64,000 bases of DNA from Actinoplanes sandaracinus (GTDB taxonomy: Bacteria > Actinomycetota > Actinomycetes > Mycobacteriales > Micromonosporaceae), in NCBI RefSeq assembly GCF_030009775.1, contig NZ_JASCTH010000008.1, positions 228,589 to 292,588 on the forward strand. The letters run 5' to 3'. The first letter of the stretch is position 1, and the number at the start of each line of letters is the position of its first letter. This document shows, piece by piece, positions 1,718 through 18,575 of the stretch. The position numbers and the translations under genes are program-made. The notes under the pieces were generated by a model. That model had not been told where the DNA came from. It searched no databases and was given only the letters and a program-made list of their open reading frames with translations.

Positions 1718-3028
1718 CTATCGCCTCCGGTCGAGCAGCAGCACGTCGACGGTCGAGCCCGCGGCCGCTGTGGTGACCCGTTCGCCGAGCACCAGCAAGC
1801 CGTTGGCCTCGGCCAAACCGGAGAGAGTGTACGGCCCACCGGCGAGCGGCTGCACCGTGTAACCGCCACCCCGCCGTTCCGCGACGTGGGCCGGCCGGAA
1901 CTCACGCAGCCCGCCGGGCGACGACACCGTCTCCAGCAGGTGCGCCTTGACGCCGGGCCGGAACACCGGCTCGGACCCGGCGAGCAGCTGGATCACCGGC
2001 CGGGCCAGCACCTCGAAACCGATCAGCGCGGCGCCCGGCTCGCCGGGCAGGCAGACCACCGGGACCTCCTCGCCGCCGACGGTGCCGAACCCGAGGGCGG
2101 TGCCGGGGCAGAGGGCGACGTCGGTGAACGCGACGGTGCCCCGGCCGGAGCCCGGCCTGGACAGCACCCGGCGCAGCATGTCGCCCGGCCCGGTGCCGGT
2201 GCCCCCGGTCGTAATGATCAGATCGGCGCGCAGCGTCTGGTCCTCCAGCAGGCCGCGCAGCCCTTCCGGGTCGTCGTCGCAGATGCCGATCCGGTACGCC
2301 GTCGCGCCCGCCTCCACCGCGGCCGCGGTGAGGGCGTGCGAGTTGGCGTCGACGACCTGCCCGGGCTGGCTGGGCCGGCCCACGTCGACGAGCTCGTCAC
2401 CGGTGGCCACGACCACCACCCGCGGGCTGGGCCGCACCATGACGTGCCCGATGCCGGCGGCGGCGAAGACGGCGACCATCGGCGGGGTGACGTAGGACCC
2501 GGCGGAGGCGAGCAGCTGCCCGACGGCGATCTCCTCCCCGGCCCGCCGGACGCCCGACCCCCGTTTCGGGGCGTGCATGATCTCGACCGCGGCCATGCCC
2601 TGATCGGTCCAGTGCACCGGGACGACCACGTCGGCGCCGAGCGGCAGCGGAGCGCCCGCCGCGACCGAGAAGCAGGTTCCCGGAGTGATCCGGACCGGCC
2701 GCCAGTGCGCCGCCCCCATGTCGCCGACCACGTTCAGCCGGACCGTGCGGGCGGTGCTCTCGAACTGCCCGAACGACGGGTGCGACCCGATGCGCCCGGC
2801 TCCCGCCAGGTCTTCCCATCGGGCCGCGTACCCGTCGATCGCGGCCTGGTCGAACGCCGGGAACGGGTGCGGCGCGACGACGTCGGCCGCCAGCGTGTTC
2901 CCGTGCGCCTGAGTGAGGTCGAGGTCGAGCGGAGGCAGCGCCCGGAGCCTGCGCAGCACGCTGCCCAGGTACTCGGCGAGAGGCATCAGCTCGTTGGCGG
3001 CCGCCTCGCGATCGGCCGTCGCGGTCAT
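1718..3028 (-). CDS. glp: Gephyrin-like Glp / MoeA molybdenum cofactor protein
   Basis: MoeA/gephyrin family protein of 436 residues. Classical MoeA inserts molybdate into adenylylated molybdopterin. In corynebacteria the copy linked to glpR (Glp) is instead a divisome component. The N-terminal MoeA domain has VAPHPFPAFDQAAIDGYA, the family substrate-loop signature in a slightly varied form. The central MoCF domain has VVVVATGDELV and IITTGGTGTGPGD, which fit the molybdopterin-binding signature, and LPGEPGAALIGFE follows. A C-terminal MoeA domain IV closes the protein. The ATG overlaps the galU stop by 4 bases (ATGA), and rimJ follows immediately. The position beside sepX argues for the Glp role, although a retained MoeA activity cannot be excluded from sequence. 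Confidence 0.85.
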   Translation of the reverse strand: MTATADREAAANELMPLAEYLGSVLRRLRALPPLDLDLTQAHGNTLAADVVAPHPFPAFDQAAIDGYAARWEDLAGAGRIGSHPSFGQFESTARTVRLNVVGDMGAAHWRPVRITPGTCFSVAAGAPLPLGADVVVPVHWTDQGMAAVEIMHAPKRGSGVRRAGEEIAVGQLLASAGSYVTPPMVAVFAAAGIGHVMVRPSPRVVVVATGDELVDVGRPSQPGQVVDANSHALTAAAVEAGATAYRIGICDDDPEGLRGLLEDQTLRADLIITTGGTGTGPGDMLRRVLSRPGSGRGTVAFTDVALCPGTALGFGTVGGEEVPVVCLPGEPGAALIGFEVLARPVIQLLAGSEPVFRPGVKAHLLETVSSPGGLREFRPAHVAERRGGGYTVQPLAGGPYTLSGLAEANGLLVLGERVTTAAAGSTVDVLLLDRRR

Positions 3029-3915
3029 CCCTTCCGACCACCGACGAATTCGGTGAGCCAGCTCAGGAACTCCTCGCCCAGGTCGTCGCGCTTGACGGCG
3101 AGTTCGACGACGGCCTGCAGGTAGCCCAGCGGCATGCCGGTGTCGTAGCGGTGACCGCGGTAGACGATGCCGTGCACCGGCACACCGTCGGCCAGCATCG
3201 TCGCCATCGCGTCGGTCAGCTGGATCTCGCCGCCGTTGCCGGGCTTGGTCTCGGCGAGCACGTCGAAGATCGAGGCGGGCAGCACATAGCGGCCGAGCAC
3301 CGCCAGGTTGCTCGGAGCCTCCTCCGGCGACGGCTTCTCGACCAGGCCGGTGACCTCGACGACGTCCGGCTTCCCGGTCTCGCGCACGGACGCGATGCCG
3401 TACCGCGACGTCTCGTGCGGGGCGACCTCCATGAACGCGAGGACGATGCCGCCGGTCTCCGCCTGCAGATCGATCATCGCTGGGAGCAGCGGCTTGTCCT
3501 CCTCGACGAACTCGTCACCGAGCAGCACCGCGAAGGCGTTGTCGCCGACGTGCGCGGCGGCGGTGCCGACGGCGTGGCCGAGGCCCAGCGCCTCACCCTG
3601 GCGGACGGTGTAGATGTCGGCGAGTTCGCTCGAACGGCGTACCGCGGCGAGCCGCTTGTGGTCGCCCTTCTCCTCGAGCCGGGCCTCCACGTCGGGACGC
3701 CGGTCGAAGTGATCGACCATCGCGGTCTTGCCGCGGCCGGTGACCAGCAGGACGTCGGTGATACCGGCTGCCGCGGCCTCCTCGACGATGTACTGCAGAA
3801 CCGGCCGGTCCACCACCGGCAGCAGTTCCTTCGGCACGGCCTTGGTGGCCGGCAGGAAGCGGGTGGCGAGCCCCGCCGCGGGGATCACGGCCTTGACGGC
3901 GCGCTTCGTCGTCAT
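3025..3915 (-). CDS. galU: UTP-glucose-1-phosphate uridylyltransferase GalU
   Basis: Makes UDP-glucose from UTP and glucose-1-phosphate for trehalose, glycogen, glycolipid and cell-wall polysaccharide synthesis. The 296-residue sequence starts with the nucleotidyltransferase motif VIPAAGLATRFLPATKAVPKE, in which the Arg and Lys bind the nucleotide phosphates. It continues with LPVVDRPVLQYIVEEA, the GEALGLGHAV and LLGDEF metal-binding regions, and a C-terminal NGGEIQLTDA plus RYDTGMPLGYLQA. All are diagnostic for bacterial GalU, and the length is standard. It is the first gene of the galU-glp-rimJ(-sepX) unit. The upstream cyclase gene on the same strand ends only 41 bases before the ATG, so read-through from it is possible. 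Confidence 0.96.
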   Translation of the reverse strand: MTTKRAVKAVIPAAGLATRFLPATKAVPKELLPVVDRPVLQYIVEEAAAAGITDVLLVTGRGKTAMVDHFDRRPDVEARLEEKGDHKRLAAVRRSSELADIYTVRQGEALGLGHAVGTAAAHVGDNAFAVLLGDEFVEEDKPLLPAMIDLQAETGGIVLAFMEVAPHETSRYGIASVRETGKPDVVEVTGLVEKPSPEEAPSNLAVLGRYVLPASIFDVLAETKPGNGGEIQLTDAMATMLADGVPVHGIVYRGHRYDTGMPLGYLQAVVELAVKRDDLGEEFLSWLTEFVGGRKG

Positions 3916-16079: not shown

Positions 16080-16502
16080 ATGGCGACGGTTACGCTGACC
16101 GCAGCGAACTTCGACGAGGTCACCAGTAAGGACGGCATCGTCCTGGTCGACTTCTGGGCCAGCTGGTGCGGGCCCTGCGTCCGCTTCGCACCGACCTACG
16201 AGCGCTCCTCGGAGAAGCACCCCGACATCGCCTTCGGCAAGGTCGACACGGAGGCGGAGCAGCTCCTGGCGGCCAAGTTCGACATCCGGTCGATCCCCAC
16301 GATCATGGCGATCCGCGACGGCATCGTGGTCTTCTCCCAGCCCGGCGCGCTTCCCGAGTCGGCTTTGGAGAGCCTGATCGAGAAGGTGCAGGAGCTCGAC
16401 ATGAACGAGGTGCGTGACCAGATGTCCGCACACAGCAAGGCGGCACACGGCGACTCCGCCGAGGCGCCGGCCCAGGACCAGCCGGCCACCGCGCGCGGCT
16501 GA
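16080..16502 (+). CDS. Thioredoxin with C-terminal extension
   Basis: 140-residue cytosolic thioredoxin that reduces protein disulfides. The active site is FWASWCGPCVRFAP (CGPC at about residues 32-35), and the cis-Pro loop reads SIPTIMAIRDG. The thioredoxin fold ends near residue 108. A further 30 residues (Ala/Gln/Ser-rich) extend beyond the usual length of about 107 and look disordered. GGAGG lies 4-5 bases before the ATG at 16080 and rules out longer starts. A good terminator follows. It has a promoter region of nearly 500 bases to itself, shared with the divergent SpoU gene, and no thioredoxin reductase next to it. Confidence 0.93.
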   Translation: MATVTLTAANFDEVTSKDGIVLVDFWASWCGPCVRFAPTYERSSEKHPDIAFGKVDTEAEQLLAAKFDIRSIPTIMAIRDGIVVFSQPGALPESALESLIEKVQELDMNEVRDQMSAHSKAAHGDSAEAPAQDQPATARG

Positions 16503-16516
16503 CCAGCGACGCAGAG

Positions 16517-16549
16517 GGCCCGTGGACCGGTTCGGTCCGCGGGCCTTTT
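16517..16549 (+). terminator. Rho-independent terminator after thioredoxin
   Basis: Twelve-base stem (GGCCCGTGGACC pairing with GGTCCGCGGGCC, one G-T wobble), 5-base loop, then TTTT. It begins 15 bases after the thioredoxin stop. Confidence 0.9.
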
Positions 16550-16625: not shown

Positions 16626-18575
16626 ATGCGATGGTCCCACCTGTCGGCTCGGCCCGGCGACTCGCTCTCCGACAGGGCGGCGCCGGCGGCCCCACCCCTG
16701 CCGCTGGCGCTGCCCGGCGCGACCGTCCGCACCTTCGACACACCCGGCTTCGCGGGGATGACGTTCTACGAGATCCGCGCGAAATCCCTGATCAACCGGG
16801 TCCCCGGGGCGTCGCGGGTGCCGTTCGAGTGGACCCTCAACCCCTACCGCGGCTGCTCGCACGCCTGCACGTACTGCCTGGCCGGTGACACGCCGATCCT
16901 GCTCGCCGACGGTTCCACCCGGCCGCTGGCCCAGATCCGGCCCGGCGACACCGTGATGGGGACCATGGGGGCGGGCGCCCATCGGCGTTATGTGCCGACC
17001 ACCGTCCTCGACCACTGGGCCACCAGCAAGCCCGCCTTCCGCGTCACCCTGGCCGACGGCACGCGCCTGGTCTCCAGCGGAGATCATCGCTTCCTCACCG
17101 ACCGCGGGTGGCGGCATGTCAGCCCCGCCGAGCCACACCTGCCGGCCCTGGCCGTCGGCGACCTGATGTTCGGGGTGGGCCGCTTCGCCGAGCCGCCCAA
17201 GGAGTCGCCCGACTATCAGGCCGGATTCGTCTGCGGTCTGGTCCGCGGCGACGCGTCCGGCGCCGGTGTGGCCGCCGAGAGCGACGCCTGGATCCGGGCC
17301 GACGGCTACCTCGACGACGTCTCCCTCACCGAGGCGGTGCGCTGGCCCGATCTGCCGGCCGGTGACTGGTTCCGGGGCTTCCTGGCCGGCGCCTTCGGCG
17401 CGGTCGGCCGCACCGACCGCCTGGCCGTGGTCTTCGAGAGCGGCGACCCGGCCTACCTGCGGCGGGTGGCGCACGCGCTCACCCACCTGGGCCTGATCGC
17501 CCGTGGTCCCGGCCGCGTCCGGCCCGGTTCCCTCGGCCGGGTCCAGACCGAGCGCCACCTCGACGCCGCGCTGCGTTTCCGGCATCTGACCGGCGCCTCG
17601 ATGGGCCCGCTGGACGCCTCCGGGGTGGGCGTGCGCCACGAGCGGCGGCTCGCGGTGGCCGACATCGAGGACCTCGGTTTGACCCTCCCGCTGTTCGACA
17701 TCTCGACCGGCACCGGTGACTTCATCGCCGACGGTGTGGTCAGCCACAACTGCTTCGCCCGCAACACCCACACCTATCTCGACCTCGACGCCGGCCACGA
17801 CTTCGACACCCGGGTGGTGGTGAAGGTGAACGCCGGCGAGCTGATCCGCCGCGAACTCGCCGACCCACGCTGGACCGGCGCACCGGTCGCGATGGGCACC
17901 AACGTCGACGTCTATCAGCGGGCCGAGGGCCGTTACCGGTTGATGCCGGAGATCCTGGCAGCGCTGCGCGACCACGCCAACCCGTTCTCGATCCTGACCA
18001 AGGGCACGCTGATCCTGCGCGATCTCGGGCTCCTCCGGCAGGCGGCCGAGGTGACCCGGGTGAGCCTGGCCTTCTCGGTCGGCTTCGTCGACGAGACTGT
18101 CTGGCGCTCGGCCGAGCCCGGCGCCCCGAGCCCGCGCCGCCGCCTGGAGGCGGTCCGCCGGCTGACCGACGCCGGGTTCGAGGTCGCGGTCCTGATGGCG
18201 CCGATCCTGCCCGGCCTCACCGACACCGAGGAGTCGATCGACGAGACCGTGGCCGCGGTCGCGGCGGCCGGAGCGACCGGCGTGACACCACTCCCGCTGC
18301 ATCTGCGGCCCGGCGCCCGCGAGTGGTACGCGGCTTGGATCGCCCGGGAGCACCCCCGTCTCCAGCCCCGCTACCGGGAACTCTTCGGCAACGGCTCCTA
18401 CCTGCCACGCGCCTACCAGGACGAGATCAACGCCCGGGTCCGGATGGCGGCCCGCCGGCACGGCCTGCACCGCCCCGCGCCGGCCACGGCCCGCGGGGAG
18501 ACCGGCACCGGCGCGCGGCCCGGTCCGGTCGCCCCGGCCCGCGCCGCCCACACCGACCAGTTGACCCTGCTGTGA
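16626..18575 (+). CDS. Intein-containing Rv2578c-family radical SAM protein (SplB-like)
   Basis: 649-residue precursor. The extein (about 357 residues after splicing) is a radical SAM enzyme of the SplB/DNA repair photolyase-like group (COG1533). YRGCSHACTY joined to CFARNTH restores the CX3CX2C cluster motif, followed by KVNAGELIRREL and LAFSVGFVDE typical of Rv2578c. A 292-residue intein interrupts it between residues 83 and 376. The start at ATG 16626 gives MRWSHLSAR, like the MRWAR start of Rv2578c. The SOS box 11 bases upstream predicts induction by DNA damage, which fits a repair role. The actual lesion or substrate is not known. The last 40 residues are low-complexity Ala/Gly/Pro. Confidence 0.92.
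   Translation: MRWSHLSARPGDSLSDRAAPAAPPLPLALPGATVRTFDTPGFAGMTFYEIRAKSLINRVPGASRVPFEWTLNPYRGCSHACTYCLAGDTPILLADGSTRPLAQIRPGDTVMGTMGAGAHRRYVPTTVLDHWATSKPAFRVTLADGTRLVSSGDHRFLTDRGWRHVSPAEPHLPALAVGDLMFGVGRFAEPPKESPDYQAGFVCGLVRGDASGAGVAAESDAWIRADGYLDDVSLTEAVRWPDLPAGDWFRGFLAGAFGAVGRTDRLAVVFESGDPAYLRRVAHALTHLGLIARGPGRVRPGSLGRVQTERHLDAALRFRHLTGASMGPLDASGVGVRHERRLAVADIEDLGLTLPLFDISTGTGDFIADGVVSHNCFARNTHTYLDLDAGHDFDTRVVVKVNAGELIRRELADPRWTGAPVAMGTNVDVYQRAEGRYRLMPEILAALRDHANPFSILTKGTLILRDLGLLRQAAEVTRVSLAFSVGFVDETVWRSAEPGAPSPRRRLEAVRRLTDAGFEVAVLMAPILPGLTDTEESIDETVAAVAAAGATGVTPLPLHLRPGAREWYAAWIAREHPRLQPRYRELFGNGSYLPRAYQDEINARVRMAARRHGLHRPAPATARGETGTGARPGPVAPARAAHTDQLTLL
16875..17750 (+). other. Intein with degenerate LAGLIDADG endonuclease
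   Basis: In-frame protein intron of 292 residues (precursor residues 84-375). It begins with Cys1 (CLAGDTPILLADG, block A), has the block B His in SSGDHRFLT, and ends with block F/G DISTGTGDFIADGVVSHN, followed by Cys+1 (CFAR). Splicing residues Cys1, His, terminal His-Asn and Cys+1 are all present, so splicing should work. The endonuclease blocks are worn: FVCGLVRGDAS keeps an acidic residue in the first motif, but FLAGAFGAVG has lost the Asp pair of the second, so homing activity is probably dead. Confidence 0.93.

What the first reader, a model, noticed from the sequence alone, without database searches (positions are those of the whole stretch)
16875..17750. Intein inserted at the third cluster cysteine of a radical SAM enzyme
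The intein sits between CSHACTY and CFAR, so its Cys+1 is the third cysteine of the CX3CX2C motif that holds the 4Fe-4S cluster. Before splicing, its own Cys1 stands in the same place. Splicing therefore decides whether the enzyme has its native cluster loop, and a bound cluster or oxidised cysteines could block splicing, giving a redox switch. Intein-bearing Rv2578c proteins are known; the conditional-splicing idea at this site is inference.
Basis: partly seen in the sequence, partly recalled or inferred. Interest (0 to 1): 0.75.

Follow-up and report, generated by a model that had tools for sequence, protein, structure and literature searches.

The report
Intein at a radical-SAM cluster cysteine
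A self-splicing protein insert sits exactly at the third iron-sulphur-cluster cysteine of a bacterial radical SAM enzyme, so the enzyme should lack its normal active site until the insert cuts itself out; related inserts recur at this same spot in other radical SAM enzymes, but whether that works as a redox switch here is untested.

Summary
A 292-residue class 1 intein (16875-17750) splits the CX3CX2C motif of an Rv2578c-family radical SAM protein; its Cys+1 is the third cluster cysteine. NCBI already has a model for this arrangement (NF038136, 871 bits). All 126 intein-bearing relatives read have the intein at that codon; the splicing nucleophiles are invariant in the 125 aligned. In the window's genus it is near-fixed (59 of 60 genomes; the sixtieth holds a decayed relic). 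Its homing endonuclease has lost a catalytic acid in 63 of 63 copies, while splicing domain and extein are equally constrained (dN/dS about 0.2). It looks immobilised, inherited and splicing-competent. A Cys-3/Cys1 disulphide trap is already in print for the Pyrococcus abyssi MoaA intein, so the redox idea has precedent but is untested here; Cys-3 is needed for catalysis anyway. Beyond the finding, intein groups of low mutual similarity occupy the same third cysteine in other radical SAM families (AmmeMemoRadiSam, SPASM, B12-binding, DUF1848, viral spore-photoproduct-lyase-like and others), including a viral split intein that divides the cluster motif between two polypeptides. First- and second-cysteine insertions also exist; fewer were found, by scans of unequal sensitivity.

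The parts
16626..18575 (+). Precursor gene: Rv2578c-family radical SAM protein interrupted by an intein (ATG 16626, stop 18573-18575)
   Evidence: NF038136 871 bits, NF038135 510 bits. The start codon is my choice of an in-frame ATG.
16626..16874 (+). N-extein, ending GC-SHA-C-TY with the first two cluster cysteines (16854-16856 and 16866-16868)
   Evidence: Cys-7 and Cys-3 invariant in 125 of 125
16875..17750 (+). Class 1 intein, 292 aa, Cys1 to Asn292
   Evidence: Hint plus endonuclease fold matches
16875..17129 (+). N-terminal splicing region with Cys1 and the block B histidine (17085-17087, motif SGDH)
   Evidence: TIGR01445 intein_Nterm 23.1 bits, just under its cut-off of 24.5; both residues 125 of 125
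17130..17615 (+). Degenerate LAGLIDADG homing-endonuclease remnant: motif 1 GFVCGLVRGD (17223-17252) keeps its acid, motif 2 GFLAGAFGAVG (17376-17408) has lost it
   Evidence: motif-2 Asp absent in 63 of 63 genus copies; Asp in both motifs in 26 of 45 other full-length inteins. Region borders are approximate.
17616..17750 (+). C-terminal splicing region: block F Asp (17697-17699), penultimate His and terminal Asn (SHN)
   Evidence: Invariant 125 of 125
17751..18572 (+). C-extein starting CFAR; Cys+1 (17751-17753) is the third cluster cysteine; remainder of the radical SAM barrel
   Evidence: PF04055 44 bits; spore photoproduct lyase structures
16080..16502 (+). Thioredoxin gene directly upstream (neighbour, probably not part of the system)
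   Evidence: TIGR01068 98 bits; upstream of 61 of 63 genus loci but also of 5 of 63 intein-less genes
16529..16545 (+). Terminator-like hairpin plus T run between the thioredoxin gene and the radical SAM gene
   Evidence: 1 found; shuffles mean 0.5, sd 0.7, so weak

Best explanation
The gene makes an inactive precursor. A class 1 intein (Cys1 N-S acyl shift, transfer to Cys+1, Asn cyclisation) removes itself, and only then are the three cluster cysteines in one CX3CX2C loop that can hold the 4Fe-4S cluster. The element arrived by homing in an ancestor, has lost endonuclease activity in this genus and is now inherited with the host gene; it persists because loss needs exact excision at a catalytic codon or loss of the whole gene. 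Because Cys-3 and Cys1 form a CxxC pair, oxidation can be expected to trap the precursor reversibly, as reported for P. abyssi MoaA; I judge this more likely a consequence of the site than a trait selected for regulation. Shown by sequence: site, residue conservation, endonuclease decay, constraint, inheritance pattern. Inferred: arrival by homing, active splicing, precursor inactivity, disulphide trapping.
For: Family and site. Cys1, block B His, block F Asp, penultimate His, Asn, Cys-7, Cys-3, Tyr-1 and Cys+1 invariant in 125 of 125 aligned inteins. Genus survey: 59 of 60 genomes have the gene over the family cut-off with a span of about 1.8-2.0 kb against about 0.95 kb when empty; the sixtieth (G026, locus L183) has an open but decayed copy with a truncated N-extein and SHP|G in place of SHN|C. 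Motif-2 acid absent in 63 of 63 genus inteins. In the genus dN/dS is 0.19 and 0.20 in the splicing parts, 0.37 in the endonuclease remnant, 0.21 in the C-extein; intein and extein distances correlate, Mantel r 0.73, 0 of 999 permutations as high. The 63 genus intein-bearing exteins form one side of a branch in a tree of 188 (FastTree support 92, not starred). Precursor model: residues 76-79 and 377-389, on either side of the split cluster loop, have pLDDT under 50 (as do 1-20, 23-28, 38-40 and 618-648), while most ten-residue blocks of the intein and the barrel are at 80 or more.
Against: No splicing was measured. dN/dS is a rough pairwise estimate in GC-rich DNA. The endonuclease remnant (0.37) is still constrained, so it may have a function that I do not explain. 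Loss of the endonuclease is inferred from one motif in an alignment, not from a cleavage assay. Near-fixation without loss in a whole genus is also what a useful intein would show. The low-confidence cluster loop in the model may only reflect poor modelling.
Confidence: 0.78

Rival explanations
1. Adaptive redox or cluster checkpoint: the intein is kept because oxidation (Cys-3/Cys1 disulphide) or a cluster or iron bound to Cys-7, Cys-3 and Cys1 holds the enzyme as a protected precursor until conditions are right.
For: Same local geometry as reported for P. abyssi MoaA. Retained across a genus after loss of an endonuclease acid and as endonuclease-free mini-inteins (20 of the 150 listed genes of the class sample by span). 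Several intein groups use the same cysteine in several radical SAM families.
Against: Every cysteine involved is needed for catalysis or splicing, so conservation says nothing about regulation. 119 of 150 listed class-level genes have no intein. Presence and absence change at least 23 times on a tree of 188 fetched genes (the fetch favoured intein-bearing genes). First- and second-cysteine insertions exist, where this trap would not form in the same way. A group-1 intein also sits in a helicase-like gene.
Confidence: 0.2
2. Still-mobile selfish element: the intein spreads among Rv2578c genes by its endonuclease.
For: Plausible for the group as a whole: Asp in both LAGLIDADG motifs in 26 of 45 full-length inteins outside the genus; intein relatives in viral contigs.
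Against: In this genus the second acid is missing in 63 of 63. Three genus genomes keep an empty second gene copy with an intact cluster motif (L141-L143) beside the intein-bearing one, though its target DNA may differ.
Confidence: 0.04
3. Splicing-dead insertion in a pseudogene.
For: One related genome shows this decay (G026).
Against: In the window the frame is open and all splicing and aligned invariant radical SAM residues are intact, with purifying selection across the genus.
Confidence: 0.03

Closest known systems
NCBIfam NF038136, intein-containing Rv2578c family radical SAM protein
   Same: Same extein family, same site in the model (intein at profile 76-334), 871 bits
   Different: The window's intein belongs to a genus-specific subgroup whose endonuclease has lost an acid; I found nothing else that sets it apart
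Pyrococcus abyssi MoaA intein (Callahan et al. 2011; seen only through two reviews)
   Same: Radical SAM host (recalled); Cys-3/Cys1 pair at the N-junction, which implies insertion at the third cluster cysteine
   Different: Different extein family, archaeal, and a disulphide trap was reported; none has been tested for the window. Its sequence was not fetched, so kinship of the inteins was not tested.
NCBIfam NF045703, intein-containing tetraether lipid synthase Tes
   Same: Radical SAM model with an intein; it aligns with the AmmeMemoRadiSam-type precursors across the N-junction (far below its cut-off of 1700)
   Different: Different extein family and intein group; the junction in Tes itself was not read
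Mycobacterial SufB and DnaB inteins as oxidative-stress sensors (PMC6195587, passages; PMC8891592, passages)
   Same: Inteins whose splicing is reported to be inhibited by oxidants; SufB is an Fe-S assembly protein
   Different: Not radical SAM; DnaBi1 uses an internal Cys48-Cys118 disulphide, for which the window's intein family has no invariant counterpart

Membership tests
Class 1 intein | Cys1, block B (T/S)xxH, block F Asp, penultimate His, terminal Asn, Cys/Ser/Thr at +1 | tested here: met
   All present in the window; invariant 125 of 125 except block B Ser (120 of 125, Gly in 5). That these features define the class is recalled, with partial support in PMC10663303.
Class 1 intein | Self-splicing activity | not testable with these tools
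   Needs expression
NF038136 intein-containing Rv2578c radical SAM | Score above the curated cut-off (700 bits) | tested here: met
   871.2 bits
Radical SAM enzyme | CX3CX2C motif (after splicing) and radical SAM domain | tested here: met
   Motif read; PF04055 44 bits, cut-off 29.5; fold matches to spore photoproduct lyase. Cluster binding not testable.
Active LAGLIDADG homing endonuclease | Acidic residue in both LAGLIDADG motifs | tested here: not met
   Motif 2 acid lost in 63 of 63 genus inteins; the defining feature itself is recalled
Redox-trapped intein (P. abyssi MoaA type) | Cys at -3 facing Cys1 | tested here: met
   125 of 125, but required by the host enzyme anyway
Redox-trapped intein (P. 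abyssi MoaA type) | Reversible disulphide that blocks splicing | not testable with these tools
   Needs biochemistry

The most novel reading that the evidence does not exclude
The third cluster cysteine of radical SAM enzymes is a general, repeatedly colonised intein site. Intein groups of low mutual similarity have settled there in many host families because only there does the precursor keep a CX3CX2C-like array (Cys-7, Cys-3, Cys1) whose oxidation or metal binding arrests splicing; the inteins would thus act as a shared maturation checkpoint for oxygen-sensitive enzymes, in bacteria, archaea and phages, including a viral split intein that builds the cluster loop by trans-splicing.
Probability: 0.15. 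Interest if true: 0.75.

Novelty: new member of a known kind. Interest (0 to 1): 0.45.

Why it matters
It is an ordinary member of a catalogued family, but a useful test case: an apparently immobilised intein, near-fixed in a genus, placed so that splicing creates the metal site of an oxygen-sensitive enzyme. With intein-less and mini-intein homologues nearby, it allows a direct test of whether inteins persist only by chance or act as regulators. The wider pattern, that intein groups of low mutual similarity recur at the same cluster cysteine in several radical SAM families, did not turn up in searches of an open-licence library; these were judged from the listings, with passages opened only for PMC3322345 and PMC7029224, PMC6195587 and PMC8891592.

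Tried and rejected
Thioredoxin partner: a thioredoxin gene lies upstream in 61 of 63 genus loci with at least 900 bp upstream (the relic L183 counted), but in only 12 of 44 other full-length, 1 of 17 mini and 5 of 63 intein-less loci (3 further loci were too short). The difference may be ancestry alone, and a terminator-like hairpin lies between the genes; not taken as evidence.

Partner cysteine inside the intein: many genus copies have a Cys in LAGLIDADG motif 1, but no Cys besides Cys1 is invariant (18 of 125 have only Cys1); rejected.

Third cysteine exclusive: rejected. In viral contigs I found first-cysteine insertions (L402, L409, L346 group) and second-cysteine insertions (L427; L431 and L419, QueE-like); several of these hosts match radical SAM models only below the cut-off. 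The three patterns differ in sensitivity (the third-cysteine pattern reads the N-junction and demands Tyr at -1, the others read the C-junction), so the counts are not a fair rate comparison. A conserved Tyr or Phe at -1 of the third cysteine could explain the preference without regulation.

Group 1 exclusive to radical SAM: rejected. The best named-phage hit (KX853510, labelled radical SAM protein-like) is helicase-like by eye (DEAQ stretch; no family search was made), the label probably carried over from the intein.

Clustering inteins by E-value in a set of 44 joined nearly all of them; bit scores were used instead.

Rfam and tRNA scans of the window found nothing. Plasmids: 2 weak hits. 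The unlisted matches were not examined.

Full report
WHAT IS THERE. The window lies in a genome of 10.2 Mb (G000, unnamed by the tools; probably an actinobacterium, my inference from the family). It encodes at 16626-18575 a radical SAM protein whose CX3CX2C motif is interrupted by an intein at 16875-17750. The N-extein ends NPYRGC-SHA-C-TY, the intein runs from CLAGDTPILLADG to FIADGVVSHN, and the C-extein begins CFARNTHT. Cys+1 (17751) is the third cluster cysteine; Cys1 (16875) takes its place in the precursor. NCBIfam recognises the whole protein as NF038136, intein-containing Rv2578c family radical SAM protein, with 871 bits; Pfam intein and Hint models match only weakly, below their cut-offs. 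The AlphaFold model (44 rows, mean pLDDT 82, pTM 0.59) matches solved inteins with endonuclease domains and, separately, spore photoproduct lyase and lipoyl synthase structures. In the model, residues on either side of the split cluster loop (76-79 and 377-389, numbered from 16629) are among the low-confidence ones, with both termini and 38-40; this fits a loop that is not formed before splicing but is weak evidence.

HOW CONSERVED. NF038135 was searched in 60 genomes of the genus, 200 of the family and 394 of the class. I hold 190 loci from these searches, chosen to favour intein-bearing genes. A script found the junction in 188 of them: 125 with an intein at the third cysteine, 63 empty. Of the two missed, L127 has a mini-intein at the same codon and L183 is a decayed relic. 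So 126 of 126 intein-bearing genes share the site. Cys1, block B His, block F Asp, penultimate His, Asn, Cys-7, Cys-3, Tyr-1 and Cys+1 are identical in 125 of 125. In the class sample, 150 matches were listed with coordinates (the window's own among them; further ones were not listed); by span 119 are empty, 20 have a mini-intein and 11 a full-length intein.

IMMOBILE IN THE GENUS. 59 of 60 genus genomes carry the gene at intein-bearing length. The remaining one, G026, has only L183: the N-extein is truncated and the junction reads SHP|GLVRN, so there the intein is decaying together with its gene and was not precisely excised. Three genus genomes (G003, G014, G016) also have a second, empty copy, over the family cut-off in one and slightly below it in two. 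The second LAGLIDADG acid is absent in 63 of 63 genus inteins (the first is kept in 62), whereas both Asp residues are present in 26 of 45 full-length inteins elsewhere. Pairwise dN/dS in the genus is 0.19 and 0.20 for the splicing parts, 0.21 for the C-extein and 0.37 for the endonuclease remnant; in 44 other full-length inteins the sums give 0.36, 0.48, 0.42 and 0.73. Intein and extein distances correlate (genus Mantel r 0.73, others 0.55, mini 0.66; 0 of 999 permutations as high in each). On a C-extein tree of 188 genes the genus is one side of a branch (FastTree support 92), while presence and absence overall need at least 23 changes, of which starred branches force only 4 for the empty state. 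This is the picture of an old, inherited, splicing-competent element with a dead endonuclease.

THE REDOX IDEA. Two reviews report that the P. abyssi MoaA intein forms a native disulphide between Cys-3 of the extein and Cys1; one adds that it blocks the first splicing step until reduced (PMC10663303, passages; PMC3922620, passages). MoaA is a radical SAM enzyme (recalled), and Cys-3 next to Cys1 implies the same third-cysteine placement, so the mechanism has been reported for the same geometry. The original paper was not held. Mycobacterial DnaB and SufB inteins are other published oxidant-sensitive cases (PMC6195587; SufB as cited there; PMC8891592; passages only). For the window nothing tests it. 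The cysteines involved are fixed by catalysis, so their conservation is uninformative, and no other intein cysteine is invariant. I therefore rate trapping as chemically expected and adaptive switching as possible but unproven. The cluster-blocks-splicing variant has no evidence either way.

BEYOND THE FINDING: THE SITE RECURS. Read by eye after, 6 of 119, 5 of 19 and 7 of 7 are inteins at the third cysteine; most of the others look like ordinary radical SAM proteins. In five genome cases both junctions were read (L197, L223, L240, L278, L302); L278 and L302 are above the AmmeMemoRadiSam cut-off TIGR04337, the other three are of the same look and align to the Tes-intein model NF045703 below its cut-off; L198 shows the same start but stops early. 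A further viral scan (77 stretches) gave, by script, 16 full-length inteins, 41 N-halves and 1 partial, so 58 of 77; 19 were not classed as inteins (one of these, L394, is by eye a truncated N-half). Many contigs are near-copies, so these are contigs and not events. Host architectures include SPL or PA0069-like, SPASM, B12-binding, NrdG2-like (below cut-off) and DUF1848. Control scans found first-cysteine insertion in 6 of 18 stretches (L402, L409 and four copies of L346, which carries inteins at both the first and the third cysteine, seven residues apart, its host assigned by eye from L361) and second-cysteine insertion in 3 of 18 (L427, L431, L419; L419 judged only by an identical junction peptide; L427 and L431 match radical SAM models below cut-off). 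These scans are not equally sensitive.

RELATIONS. A profile of 25 Rv2578c inteins scores viral SPL-like third-cysteine inteins at 214-326 bits, SPASM, L314 and DUF1848 hosts at 127-145, the QueE-like L431 at 74, and the own-genome second hit L002 at 27. Single linkage at 40 bits gives separate groups: Rv-like (with L431); AmmeMemoRadiSam with B12-binding; and split SPL-like with L361 and L346; L323 falls in with non-radical-SAM viral inteins, and L313 alone. All inteins are distant homologues, so these are similarity groups and not proof of separate origins. The 36 Rv2578c inteins tested form one side of a branch against 11 viral ones (SH-aLRT 98; long branches among the viral rows); the direction of transfer is not resolved. 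A group-1 intein in a helicase-like gene of KX853510 shows that the group is not confined to radical SAM hosts.

SPLIT VERSION. 36 of the 41 N-halves are of one SPL-like kind. A C-half ending in THN|CY was found in 33 of the 36 such loci examined (L344 was not examined there; L394 was). In 19 of 19 loci measured, both halves lie on one strand, 501-543 bp apart. In the two loci read, an open frame with an HNH-like stretch (by eye) lies antisense across the gap. The C-half matches PF20903, spore photoproduct lyase, in both cases tested. Here the first two cluster cysteines and the third are on different polypeptides.

VERDICT. Observation confirmed; family known; the regulatory reading is plausible with a published precedent but untested. 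The most interesting outcome is the recurrence of the site, which needs an unbiased census.

Noticed in passing
L183 (G026), 1917-3041 minus strand: Decayed copy: N-extein truncated, splice end SHP|G instead of SHN|C, intein frame still open; the only one of 60 genus genomes without a gene over the family cut-off.
   Followed up: partly
L141, L142, L143 (genomes G003, G016, G014): Second, intein-less Rv2578c-like copy with an intact CX3CX2C in genomes that also carry the intein-bearing copy.
   Followed up: partly
L341, L343, L375 and 33 similar viral contigs: Split intein in a viral spore-photoproduct-lyase-like gene: N-half ends about 98 aa after Cys1, C-half starts 43-54 aa before the third cluster cysteine; in the two loci read an HNH-like frame lies antisense between the halves.
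   Followed up: partly
L346 2825-3829 plus strand (also L349, L373, L390): Two inteins in one radical SAM motif: one at the first and the start of another at the third cluster cysteine, separated by only seven extein residues.
   Followed up: partly
L433 (KX853510.1, Rctr197k_024): Annotated radical SAM protein-like, but the host protein looks helicase-like; the label probably comes from its intein.
   Followed up: partly
L024, L092, L123 inteins: Low-complexity expansions inside the dead endonuclease region (for example repeats like PGAAISTR in L123).
   Followed up: no
window 16080-16545: Thioredoxin gene with a terminator-like hairpin just upstream of the radical SAM gene; thioredoxin found upstream in 61 of 63 genus loci.
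   Followed up: yes
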